Made by a program: the position numbers and the translations under genes. The notes below the pieces were generated by a model that saw nothing but the letters and a program-made list of their open reading frames with translations, did no database searches and was not told where the DNA came from. 64,000 bases of DNA, from the NCBI RefSeq assembly GCF_012863495.1, contig NZ_JAAVJL010000003.1:1-64000 (forward strand). The letters are read 5' to 3'. Positions 24,818 to 29,068 of this stretch are shown piece after piece. The DNA comes from Pseudanabaena yagii GIHE-NHR1. GTDB lineage: Bacteria; Cyanobacteriota; Cyanobacteriia; Pseudanabaenales; Pseudanabaenaceae. Each line of letters begins with the position of its first letter. The first letter of the stretch is position 1.

Positions 24818-25399
24818 TCATACAAAAACACAAGATTTAGTTAATGCTTTTTGTAATAGATTTTGGTAACTTTGGTCGTCAATTTCATAGGCTCCAAATC
24901 TTGCTAAATGCGGATTCATTAACTGAGCATCAAATAAACCATAACCCCGCGATCGCAAATGCTCTACTAACTTCACCATTGCCACCTTTGAGCCTTCAGG
25001 AATTTTAAAAAACATCGACTCACCAATAAATACGCCACGAATAGCGATCCCCAGAATTCCGCCTGCTAACTTGTCGCCTTGCCATGTCTCAAAACTATGT
25101 GCCCAACCTGCTTGGTGCAAATTAAAATATAGCGATCGCAGTTCGTTGGAGATCCATGTCGTTTCGCGATCGGCACAGCCTTCTACAACCTGCTCAAATG
25201 CACTATCAATCTTGACTTCAAAGCGATTTTGATTGATTGCCCGCTGCAAAGATTTGGGATAGCGAAAGCGATCGTCAAGGGGGATCAAGGTGCGTTCATT
25301 GGTGTAATACCACTCAATTGGCTGTCCATCACCTTCGGACATCAAAAAGTAGCCTTGGCTATAACCGTCAATAACGCTGCGGATATCAAACCTTTCCAC
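24818..25399 (-). CDS. aat: leucyl/phenylalanyl-tRNA-protein transferase
   Basis: 193 residues with the Aat core: AGWAHSFETWQGDKLAGGILGIAIRG split into HSFETW and GGILG, then GESMFFK and LFDAQLMNPHLARFGAYEI. The enzyme transfers Leu or Phe from tRNA to N-terminal Arg/Lys of proteins, marking them for ClpS-ClpAP. The N-terminal part (LMSEGDGQPIEWY) is the cyanobacterial short form. clpB lies 1 kb upstream but on the other strand, so proximity to a Clp gene may be coincidental. Confidence 0.9.
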   Translation of the reverse strand: MERFDIRSVIDGYSQGYFLMSEGDGQPIEWYYTNERTLIPLDDRFRYPKSLQRAINQNRFEVKIDSAFEQVVEGCADRETTWISNELRSLYFNLHQAGWAHSFETWQGDKLAGGILGIAIRGVFIGESMFFKIPEGSKVAMVKLVEHLRSRGYGLFDAQLMNPHLARFGAYEIDDQSYQNLLQKALTKSCVFV

Positions 25400-25592
25400 A
25401 AATAGATTTCCAACTCACGAGTAGAGGACTTAGTTTTGTAATCTATTTTAAAGTCTCTTCATAAATTGAAATACTTTTTCATTTAGTTTTAGCTTTTTAA
25501 ATCAGATTGTTAAATGAAAAATCACTCAATATTTAAACTTATTTGCTTACAAAAAGCTGAAAACTTTAAAATATATAAAAAAGGCTAAAACG

Positions 25593-25769
25593 ATAAATGG
25601 CTCACTCAGCTTAAGTAGAAGTACTTAGTCAGAGCGAACCATTTATGCTTATAAATTGTTCTTAAATTTGGTATTGAAGTTCAGAATCTTTAAATAGGCC
25701 GATTCCGTTTGAATGTTTATATTTTGCAAGATCTTGATCAAAAACTGGGATCGCTTAATATTTTCTTTA
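25593..25769. ncRNA. candidate structured RNA, copy 1 of a tandem pair
   Basis: First of two related segments upstream of clpB. Parts: a long hairpin (25593-25600 ATAAATGG with 25639-25646 CCATTTAT), a second hairpin (GAATC 25684-25688 with GATTC 25701-25705) followed by CCGTTTGAATG, and a conserved block GATCGCTTAATA-TTTCTTTA at 25749-25769. Copy 2 keeps these parts at nearly identical spacing with compensatory changes in both stems. Strand is unsettled: the minus strand would place the long hairpin with a nearby T-run at the 3' end; the plus strand has a plausible TTGCTT/TAAAAT promoter upstream. Confidence 0.5.
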
Positions 25770-25936
25770 TAATCCAACTCGGCAATCCAGCCTAAGTTTA
25801 ATTACTCACCCCAAGAGCCTTGATTTCTCTAGATCCCCGTATTTCTACTCATAAACACTGGATTTTGCGGCTAATTAGGCTTAATTAGCGTAATTAATGG
25901 TCGGGCAAAATGAAAATTTCAAGAAGCTAGATAAAA

Positions 25937-26115
25937 ATAAGTGGCTCTTAGTGAGTAGGTAAAAATTACCATTTCTCTCTGAGAACCACTTACTTTTTTA
26001 GTAGTTTATTAAGTTTGTATTTAAATTCAGAGCCTATATATAAGCTGGCTCCGTTTGAATGAATCTATTTTGATAGAAAATTTGTCACTTTTGAGATCGC
26101 TTAATACTTTCTTTA
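25937..26115. ncRNA. candidate structured RNA, copy 2 of a tandem pair
   Basis: Second copy, offset about 345 bases. Hairpin 1: TAAGTGG (25938-25944) with CCACTTA (25986-25992). Hairpin 2: GAGCC (26030-26034) with GGCTC (26047-26051), followed by the same CGTTTGAATG. The conserved block GATCGCTTAATA-TTTCTTTA is at 26095-26115. Compared with copy 1, A-U pairs become G-C pairs in both stems. A T-run follows hairpin 1 on both strands here. No known RNA family is recognised. Confidence 0.5.
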
Positions 26116-26449
26116 CAGTTAAACTTGAGAACTTATTTATTGAGTATTTGTACTCATGTAGGTTATTTCTTTTAAATGTATTTTTAGTGATGTTTAGTAA
26201 GCAAATATGTTAATTGCTACTTAATTTTTTCTATTACTTTAAATTAATTTAACAAAGTTGCAAATATTGACTTTGATATAGATTTATTGCTGTTTGTATT
26301 GATATGTATCATTTGCTTAATAAATCTTCCCGAATATTGCTACAGGTACGGAAACACGCACCCTTTAGCAAGGTAGAACCGATCCCGCTAAAAATCTAGA
26401 CACTCTAAGATATTCTCAGTTGTCTAAATGCCACAGGAGGTAACTAGCG
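26116..26449 (+). promoter_or_regulatory. clpB upstream region
   Basis: AT-rich, no gene. Just before clpB there is a clear ribosome-binding site (AGGAGG about 8 bases before ATG 26450). No CIRCE element (TTAGCACTC-N9-GAGTGCTAA) is visible, so HrcA control is not supported here. Confidence 0.5.
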
Positions 26450-29068
26450 ATGCAACCAACTAATCCTAATCAATTTACTGAAAAAGCATGGGCGGCGATC
26501 GCAAGGACACCCGACGTGGTGAAAGCAGCCCAACAACAACAAATAGAGCCTGAACATTTACTCAAATCCTTGCTAGAGGAAGAAGGGCTAGCATCGAGTA
26601 TTTTTAGCAAAGCGGGGATCAATATTCAGCGTTTGCGCGATCGCACCGATGAGTTTATTAATCGTCAGCCCAAAGTATCTAGCTCAAATACGGCGGTGTA
26701 CTTAGGTAAAAATTTAGATGTCTTACTAGATCGCGCTGAAAAGGAACGTAAAAGTTTTGGCGATGATTTTATTTCCATTGAGCATATCCTCTTGCCCTAC
26801 TGCAAAGACGATCGCTTCGGCAAACCCCTCTATCAAGAAATGGGAATCGATGAAGCAAAGCTCCGTAACATTATTCAGCAAGTGCGAGGCAGTCAAAAAG
26901 TGAGTGATCAAAATCCCGAAAACAAGTACGAAGCTTTAACTAAATATGGTCGTGATCTAACAGAGTTAGCCCGTGAAGGTAAGCTTGATCCCGTGATCGG
27001 TCGTGATGATGAAATTCGCCGCACGATCCAGATTTTGTCACGCCGTACTAAAAATAATCCTGTCTTAATCGGTGAACCGGGGGTAGGTAAAACGGCGATC
27101 GCTGAAGGACTAGCTCAACGCATTCTCAGTGGTGATGTGCCTGAGTCGCTGCAAGAACGTAAGCTCATTGCGCTGGATATGGGCGGCTTGATTGCGGGTG
27201 CAAAATATCGGGGTGAATTTGAGGAACGGCTGAAAGCGGTTCTGAAGGAAGTTACCGAGTCGAACGGGCATATCATTCTATTTATTGATGAAATTCATAC
27301 CGTTGTCGGCGCAGGGGCAACACAAGGTGCAATGGATGCGGGTAACTTGCTCAAGCCCATGTTGGCGAGAGGTGAGTTGCGTTGTATTGGTGCAACGACT
27401 TTGGATGAATATCGGAAATATATTGAAAAAGATGCTGCCCTTGAGCGTCGGTTCCAACAGGTTTACATCGATCAGCCCAATGTTGAAGATACAATTTCGA
27501 TTTTGCGGGGTCTGCGCGATCGCTACGAGTTGCACCATGGCGTAAAAATCTCCGATACCGCGCTAGTTGCTGCCGCCACCCTTTCCAATCGCTATATTAG
27601 CGATCGCTTTTTACCTGACAAGGCGATCGATCTAGTTGACGAGTCCGCCGCGAAGCTGAAAATGGAAATCACTTCTCAACCTGAAACCCTTGATGAAATC
27701 AATCGCAAGGTGATTCAGCTAGAGATGGAATGTCTCTCTCTCAAAAAAGAAACCGATCGCGAGTCCCTAGATCGCCTCGAAAAATTGAATAAAGAATTGG
27801 GCGACTTGAAGGAAGAACAAACCACCCTCAAGGCTCAGTGGGAAGCCGAGAAACAGGTGATCGATAACATCCGTAAACTCAAGGAAAATATTGATCATGT
27901 CAATGTCGAGATTCAACAAGCAGAGCGCAATTACGACCTAAACAAAGCAGCGGAGTTGAAGTATGGCAAATTAACGGATTTGCAACGTCAGTTAGAAATT
28001 GCGGAGGTCAATCTCAAGGAAGCACAAACTTCAGGGCGATCGCTATTGCGTCAAGAAGTTACGGAAGAAGACATTGCCGAAATCATTTCTAAATGGTCAG
28101 GTATTCCCGTTAGCAAGTTAGTGGAATCGGAAAAAGAAAAGCTCTTGCAATTGGAAGATGTCCTCCACGATCGCGTAGTTGGTCAAGAAGAGGCTGTCAC
28201 AGCGATCGCTGATGCTATCCAAAGATCCAGAGCAGGACTCGCCGATCCCAACCGTCCGATCGCTAGCTTTATTTTCCTAGGTCCCACAGGTGTCGGTAAA
28301 ACGGAACTTGCCAAAGCCCTCGCCGCCTATCTCTTCGATACCGAAGACTCGATGGTACGGATTGATATGTCCGAATATATGGAGAAGCACAGCGTTTCCC
28401 GCTTAGTCGGCGCACCTCCTGGCTATGTCGGCTATGAAGAAGGCGGACAATTGACGGAAGCCGTGCGTCGTCGTCCCTATGCTGTGATTCTCTTTGATGA
28501 AATCGAAAAGGCCCATCCAGATGTATTTAATATCATGCTGCAAATCCTAGATGATGGGCGCGTTACCGATTCACAAGGTCGCACCGTTGACTTCAAGAAT
28601 TCGATTATCATCATGACCAGCAACGTTGGTTCGCAATATATTCTCGATATTGCAGGAGATGATGCTCGCCATGAAGAAATGCGCGCAAGGGTAATGGAAT
28701 CGATGCAATCCAGTTTCCGTCCTGAATTCCTCAATCGCATTGATGAAATTGTGATCTTCCATGCCCTCCGCCGTGAACAATTGCGACGTATCGTCAAGCT
28801 TCAAGTTCAGCGCTTAGAAAAACGTTTAGGCGATCGCCGCATGACCCTAAAACTTGCGGATGCGGCCCTCGACTTCATCGCTGAAGTTGGCTATGATCCT
28901 GTCTACGGAGCGCGTCCACTCAAACGCATCATTCAGCGACAACTGGAAACCCAAATCGCCAAAGGAATTTTGCGTGGTGACTTCTCCGATGGCGACACTA
29001 TTTTTGTAGATATCGAAAATGAGCGTCTCGCCTTTAAGCGACTTCACTCTGGTTTAGTCACTGTTTAA
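26450..29068 (+). CDS. clpB: ATP-dependent disaggregase ClpB
   Basis: 872 residues. N-terminal repeat domain (about 1-150), first AAA module with Walker [10 protein letters not shown] and Walker B LFIDEIHT, a middle coiled-coil domain (about 405-530, [15 protein letters not shown] onward), second AAA module with GPTGVGKTE and [13 protein letters not shown], and the C-terminal sensor-2 region [11 protein letters not shown]. The hexameric chaperone resolves protein aggregates with DnaK. The PGYVGY pore loop is present and no ClpP-binding IGF loop is seen, separating it from ClpC. Preceded by a strong ribosome-binding site and followed by an intrinsic terminator. Confidence 0.97.

What the first reader, a model, noticed from the sequence alone, without database searches (positions are those of the whole stretch)
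25593..26115. Tandem pair of a covarying structured RNA upstream of clpB
Two segments about 345 bases apart share four parts at nearly identical spacing (second hairpin 89/91 and conserved block 154/156 bases from the first stem). The stems differ by compensating changes: AAATGG/CCATTT against AAGTGG/CCACTT, and GAATC/GATTC against GAGCC/GGCTC. Single-stranded parts (CGTTTGAATG and GATCGCTTAATA-TTTCTTTA) are conserved. This is the signature of a functional RNA kept through duplication, in a 1-kb gap with no gene. I recognise no known family.
Basis: seen in the sequence. Interest (0 to 1): 0.8.

Follow-up and report, generated by a model that had tools for sequence, protein, structure and literature searches.

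The report
Undescribed cyanobacteria-wide small RNA gene
The two repeated segments are neighbouring copies of a small RNA gene that occurs in roughly six of ten cyanobacterial genomes examined and is in no RNA family library I could search, so a conserved part of the cyanobacterial regulatory repertoire appears to be unnamed.

Summary
The transcript runs on the MINUS strand, away from clpB. Each copy is a complete sRNA gene: an A-rich upstream block, an extended -10 box, a predicted start near AUUCAAACGG, a 7-bp 5' hairpin with a conserved loop, and a Rho-independent terminator (about 128 and 137 nt). Among 36 copies from 21 Pseudanabaena genomes the stems covary far above both controls. Standard pairs include 73 G-U against 4 A-C on the minus strand, which fixes the strand. 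The duplication is old: A and B copies form separate clades across the genus. A covariance model finds the element in 230 of 390 Cyanobacteriia genomes (117 of 160 genera). Other clades keep it at unrelated loci (yqeG-RNA-proB; DUF3493-RNA-DUF1565), and several genomes have both, so it is a free-standing gene. Nostocales carry a second copy of the hairpin inside the RNA. Rfam 15 has no match. It is not 6S, and tested features of Yfr1, NsiR4, SyR1/PsrR1 and ApcZ are not met. An unnamed entry in transcriptome supplements cannot be excluded. Most likely it is a trans-acting sRNA whose 5' hairpin is the binding unit. Its partner is unknown; no expression data here.

The parts
25933..26060 (-). sRNA copy B, predicted transcript (about 128 nt), start near AUUCAAACGG, end in the U run
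   Evidence: Covariance-model match 26000-26117; start inferred from the -10 box, not measured
25578..25714 (-). sRNA copy A, predicted transcript (about 137 nt)
   Evidence: Covariance-model match 25654-25771; start inferred
26028..26053 (-). Copy B 5' hairpin CGGAGCC/GGCUCUG with 12-nt loop; second pair an invariant G-U
25682..25707 (-). Copy A 5' hairpin CGGAAUC/GAUUCUG with 12-nt loop
25938..25996 (-). Copy B Rho-independent terminator hairpin, followed by UUAUUUUUAUC
   Evidence: Folded on the minus strand -27.7 kcal/mol, z -5.68; 11 of 13 stem pairs with double changes
25594..25647 (-). Copy A terminator hairpin, followed by CGUUUUAGCCUUUUUU
   Evidence: Folded on the minus strand -28.3 kcal/mol, z -6.31
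26067..26072 (-). Copy B -10 box CAAAAT
   Evidence: Column conservation A 103/105 and T 103/105 at hexamer positions 2 and 6, usually preceded by TG in the class
25721..25726 (-). Copy A -10 box CAAAAT
26101..26117 (-). Copy B A-rich upstream block TGTAAAGAAAGTATTAA (about -57 to -41): UP element or activator site
   Evidence: Most conserved upstream element in 105 sequences
25755..25771 (-). Copy A A-rich upstream block TATAAAGAAAATATTAA
26142..26155 (.). Inverted repeat GAGTA-CAAA-TACTC upstream of copy B, possible operator
   Evidence: A RAGTA-N4-TACTY site lies in the 60 nt upstream of all 15 B copies printed (for L040 read by eye)

Best explanation
Each copy is an independent small-RNA gene transcribed on the window's minus strand from its own promoter and stopped by its own Rho-independent terminator. 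It belongs to an ancient cyanobacterial sRNA family not in Rfam. The RNA acts in trans: the 5' hairpin (conserved loop and flanks, shape-conserved stem with an invariant G-U wobble) is the binding unit, which evolution has multiplied by tandem gene duplication (Pseudanabaena), hairpin duplication inside the RNA (Nostocales) and unlinked paralogous loci. I think it more likely that the hairpin is bound by a protein (about 0.5) than that its loop pairs with mRNAs (about 0.35). Shown here: the covarying structure, strand, terminators, promoter-like conservation, spread and copy history. Inferred: transcription, start site and trans action. Not known: the partner.
For: Covariation against two controls. 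G-U 73 vs A-C 4 on the minus strand, against 3 vs 19 on the plus strand. Extended -10 and A-block conservation at fixed spacing. Terminators found in 86 of 120 homologues by a simple scan, median RNA length about 112 nt. Homologues in 230/390 genomes and 117/160 genera. An exact pattern in 257 Gb returned 108 stretches; all 80 listed look cyanobacterial, counting one contig labelled Gracilibacteria that carries yqeG. Changing neighbours argue against a leader role. Second hairpin in 31 of 48 DUF3493-type loci vs 0.15 expected. A/B split older than the sampled genus. No conserved ORF.
Against: No expression data for any member. Copy A's U run is interrupted. Two Pseudanabaena genomes (G009, G015) and several families lack a detectable copy. 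The trans role and the protein-binding preference are inferences from the conservation pattern only. Support for the B clade is modest (58).
Confidence: 0.85

Rival explanations
1. It is a cis-acting leader (riboswitch or attenuator): the hairpin and terminator control the downstream gene (aat here, proB elsewhere).
For: In at least 27 loci proB follows on the same strand, and in Pseudanabaena aat usually does.
Against: At the DUF3493-DUF1565 locus the next gene is convergent, so there is nothing to lead. In L032 aat lies on the opposite strand, and L038, L040 and L043 have other genes. No conserved antiterminator pairing was seen.
Confidence: 0.07
2. Same gene, other mechanism: a trans-acting antisense sRNA whose conserved 5' tail and hairpin loop base-pair with mRNAs, as for most characterised cyanobacterial sRNAs.
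For: Loop CAGC..AUAUAAAG and flank UUCAAA are the most conserved transcribed letters. Trans-encoded cyanobacterial sRNAs such as PsrR1 and IsaR1 work on mRNA targets (PMC6202907).
Against: The stem is held only in shape with an invariant G-U pair, and in the Nostocales second hairpin the middle of the loop is not kept while the stem and the UAAA side are. No anti-Shine-Dalgarno stretch. Targets were not searched.
Confidence: 0.35
3. It is a known cyanobacterial sRNA (PsrR1, NsiR4, Yfr1, Yfr2, ncl0160/Sye_sRNA1, 6S) that Rfam models poorly or lacks.
For: Similar breadth of distribution and length to PsrR1 (131 nt; PMC6202907).
Against: 6S is a separate locus in this genome. SyR1/PsrR1 and ApcZ primer sequences match about as poorly as in shuffles, and SyR1 lies between fabF and hoxH (PMC2662882). 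No NtcA site excess, no Yfr1 motif. Sye_sRNA1 lies by psbD or cobB (PMC6091082).
Confidence: 0.1
4. A DNA-level repeat or mobile element rather than an RNA gene.
For: Tandem copies and inverted repeats.
Against: Only two copies in the genome, orthologous across the genus, G-U asymmetry, terminators; no viral hits.
Confidence: 0.01

Closest known systems
Yfr2 family (cyanobacterial functional RNA 2)
   Same: Short, own promoter, near-phylum-wide, several paralogous copies per genome at unrelated loci (PMC2662882)
   Different: Different sequence: the Yfr2a primer segment has at best 9 mismatches of 27; no Rfam match of any kind
PsrR1 (SyR1)
   Same: About 131 nt, widely conserved, free-standing sRNA
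   Different: Sequence and locus differ (fabF-hoxH spacer; PMC2662882); tested primer segments absent
NsiR4
   Same: Widely conserved free-standing sRNA
   Different: NsiR4 homologues have an NtcA site at about -41.5 (PMC6316151); here 1 of 120 loci has GTAN8TAC, 4 in shuffles
CsrB/RsmZ-type protein-sequestering RNAs (working analogy, from general knowledge)
   Same: Repeated hairpin modules and multiplied copies
   Different: No GGA-loop repeats and no evidence of a protein partner; not a member

Membership tests
Any Rfam 15 family | Score above the curated gathering threshold | tested here: not met
   Window, relaxed, 20 distant homologous loci: only tRNAs pass
6S RNA (RF00013) | Covariance-model match | tested here: not met
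   6S found once, at C1:1316778-1316965, not here
NsiR4 | NtcA site GTAN8TAC upstream | tested here: not met
   1/120 loci, 4/120 in shuffles
Yfr1 | Single-stranded ACUCCUCAC motif | tested here: not met
   0/120 loci; motif from PMC4734099
PsrR1 (SyR1) | Sequence identity to SyR1 | tested here: not met
   Two primer segments: best 9 and 7 mismatches, shuffled 9 and 9; full SyR1 sequence not available
PsrR1 (SyR1) | Pairing with psaL, psaJ, chlN, cpcA mRNAs and high-light induction | not testable with these tools
   No annotated transcriptome or expression data
ncl0160 / Sye_sRNA1 | Conserved 23-25 aa peptide (ncl0160); locus next to psbD or cobB (Sye_sRNA1) | tested here: not met
   Neighbours are yqeG, proB, DUF3493, aat, clpB. 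The only recurrent ORF start (27/120) is at stem pair 1, which reads ACG instead of AUG in about half of the sequences
Free-standing bacterial sRNA gene (general kind) | Own promoter, structured RNA, own terminator, neighbour-independent | tested here: met
   promoter and terminator by sequence only
Free-standing bacterial sRNA gene (general kind) | Detected transcript | not testable with these tools
   No RNA-seq available

The most novel reading that the evidence does not exclude
This is an undescribed, near-phylum-wide cyanobacterial sRNA whose hairpin sequesters or recruits a conserved protein (a CsrB-like logic), with module number tuned by three separate kinds of duplication.
Probability: 0.3. 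Interest if true: 0.85.

Novelty: new member of a known kind. Interest (0 to 1): 0.62.

Why it matters
Only a handful of sRNAs are known to span most cyanobacteria (6S, Yfr1, Yfr2, NsiR4, PsrR1). Another family of that breadth, with a precise covariance model, fixed synteny and a clear hairpin core, can be probed directly in Nostoc, Thermosynechococcus or Pseudanabaena, and could be added to Rfam so that it is annotated in thousands of genomes.

Tried and rejected
clpB leader: rejected, divergent and not conserved. Plus-strand RNA: rejected by G-U/A-C counts and alignment-fold energy (-27.4 vs -17.9 kcal/mol); single-sequence energies did not separate the strands. RpaB (HLR1) site: HLR1-like matches exceed shuffles (28 vs 5 of 120), but position profiling puts most of them upstream, at about -125 to -86, where some overlap yqeG codons, and the conserved A-block itself fits HLR1 poorly; left as a weak lead. 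Coding RNA: no shared ORF. Viral collection: no hits. mRNA target search not attempted for lack of annotated genomes. A strict regular expression first missed most Nostocales second hairpins; a pairing-based scan found them.

Full report
CHECK OF THE OBSERVATION. The two segments exist as described, 346 bp apart in the 1,050-bp gap between aat (minus strand, starts at 25399) and clpB (plus strand, starts at 26450) (gene names are my reading of the proteins). Rfam 15 has only a tRNA in the whole window, and relaxed thresholds give only chance-level hits.

WHO HAS IT. DNA searches found the pair in most genomes of the genus. The genus is Pseudanabaena: locus L137, Pseudanabaena sp. CAN_BIN31, is on a contig of the same length (8,388 bases) as that of relative G006. 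The core covariance model R1 (118 nt, 36 copies) hits 24 of 26 genus genomes, 17 of them twice at high score, and exactly two places in the window's own genome.

STRAND. On the minus strand the consensus structure has 73 G-U and 4 A-C cells; on the plus strand it has 3 G-U and 19 A-C. The alignment fold is -27.4 against -17.9 kcal/mol.

COVARIATION. On the MAFFT alignment A1, which is not fitted to a structure, 14 of 20 pairs have double changes and 97.9% of cells pair. Shuffles give 83.8% and partner slides 32-42%. Across 105 sequences of the class the 5' stem pairs in 99.9% of cells: pair 1 is C-G 53 and U-A 52, pair 2 is G-U in 104 of 105, pairs 3-6 vary with compensation and pair 7 never varies (that alignment was fitted to the model and leans to the structure).

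ANATOMY. Column conservation shows, in order: A-block TAAARAAAA.ATTA; variable spacer; extended -10 box TG-N-NANNNT with A and T at 103/105 each; then TTCAAA, stem, loop CAGC..ATATAAAG, stem, TRAA..ATAAAA. Variable letters at near-constant length between block and box look like promoter DNA, so I place the transcript start at TTCAAA; this is inference. CAAAAT as a Synechocystis -10 element six nt before a mapped start is reported in PMC2662882. A terminator was found automatically in 86 of 120 homologues, most RNAs being about 90-155 nt.

SPREAD AND SYNTENY. The broader model R2 finds it in 230 of 390 Cyanobacteriia genomes, 117 of 160 genera. A phylum draw gave 101 of 386, every listed hit in the same class. 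An exact degenerate pattern against 84,980 species gave 108 stretches; of the 80 listed, 79 are titled as cyanobacteria or cyanobacterial MAGs and one as a Gracilibacteria MAG, whose contig carries yqeG and is probably a binning error. Of 127 loci examined, neighbours fall into groups: yqeG and/or proB (45, plus 2 with tldD), DUF3493 and/or DUF1565/SLH (52), clpB and/or aat (12) (some loci are the same record fetched twice, and the gene names are my own reading of the sequences, not a family search). Several genomes hold both of the first two groups (G043, G629, G049, G076). The changing neighbours, and the convergent gene downstream in Nostocales, exclude a general leader role.

HISTORY. In a tree of copies the A sequences (support 85) and B sequences (58) separate and the Pseudanabaena clade holds together (90). 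Genomes with one copy have a B or, once, an A, which suggests loss rather than an unduplicated ancestor. B promoters share an inverted repeat RAGTA-N4-TACTY, so the copies may be regulated differently. In the DUF3493 group 31 of 48 RNAs contain a second GGGGUC...AAA-GACCCY hairpin about 20 nt after the first, against 0.15 expected from shuffles.

FUNCTION. Shown: a structured, terminator-ended, promoter-preceded, neighbour-independent element under selection. Inferred: an sRNA acting in trans. The stem is conserved in shape with a fixed wobble pair, the loop and flanks in letters, and the hairpin has been multiplied in three ways. I read this as a binding module, protein more likely than mRNA, and hold that step at about 0.5.

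COMPARISON. 6S lies elsewhere in this genome. The NtcA site of NsiR4, the Yfr1 motif, and the SyR1/PsrR1 and ApcZ primer sequences are absent. Sye_sRNA1 has other neighbours. Full-text searches found no description, but the library holds only open-licence papers and no supplements could be read. The Nostoc PCC 7120 list of 327 predicted sRNAs (PMC4734099) may hold a member without a name. I therefore claim a new, apparently unnamed family of a known kind.

Noticed in passing
L085, L171 and about 30 other Nostocales-type loci: The sRNA carries a second, partly degenerate copy of its hairpin about 20 nt downstream of the first.
   Followed up: partly
window 26142-26155 and equivalents upstream of B copies: Inverted repeat RAGTA-N4-TACTY at a nearly fixed place upstream of B copies, a candidate operator of an unknown regulator.
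   Followed up: partly
L081, L082, L085, L090, L091, L098, L100: A tRNA-Thr(CGU) gene lies about 0.4-0.6 kb upstream of the sRNA in these genomes.
   Followed up: no
L125: Contig labelled Candidatus Gracilibacteria carries the sRNA next to yqeG and is probably a cyanobacterial contig mis-binned.
   Followed up: no
Genomes G009 and G015 (Pseudanabaena): No detectable copy although completeness is 93% and 99%; lineage loss or strong divergence.
   Followed up: no
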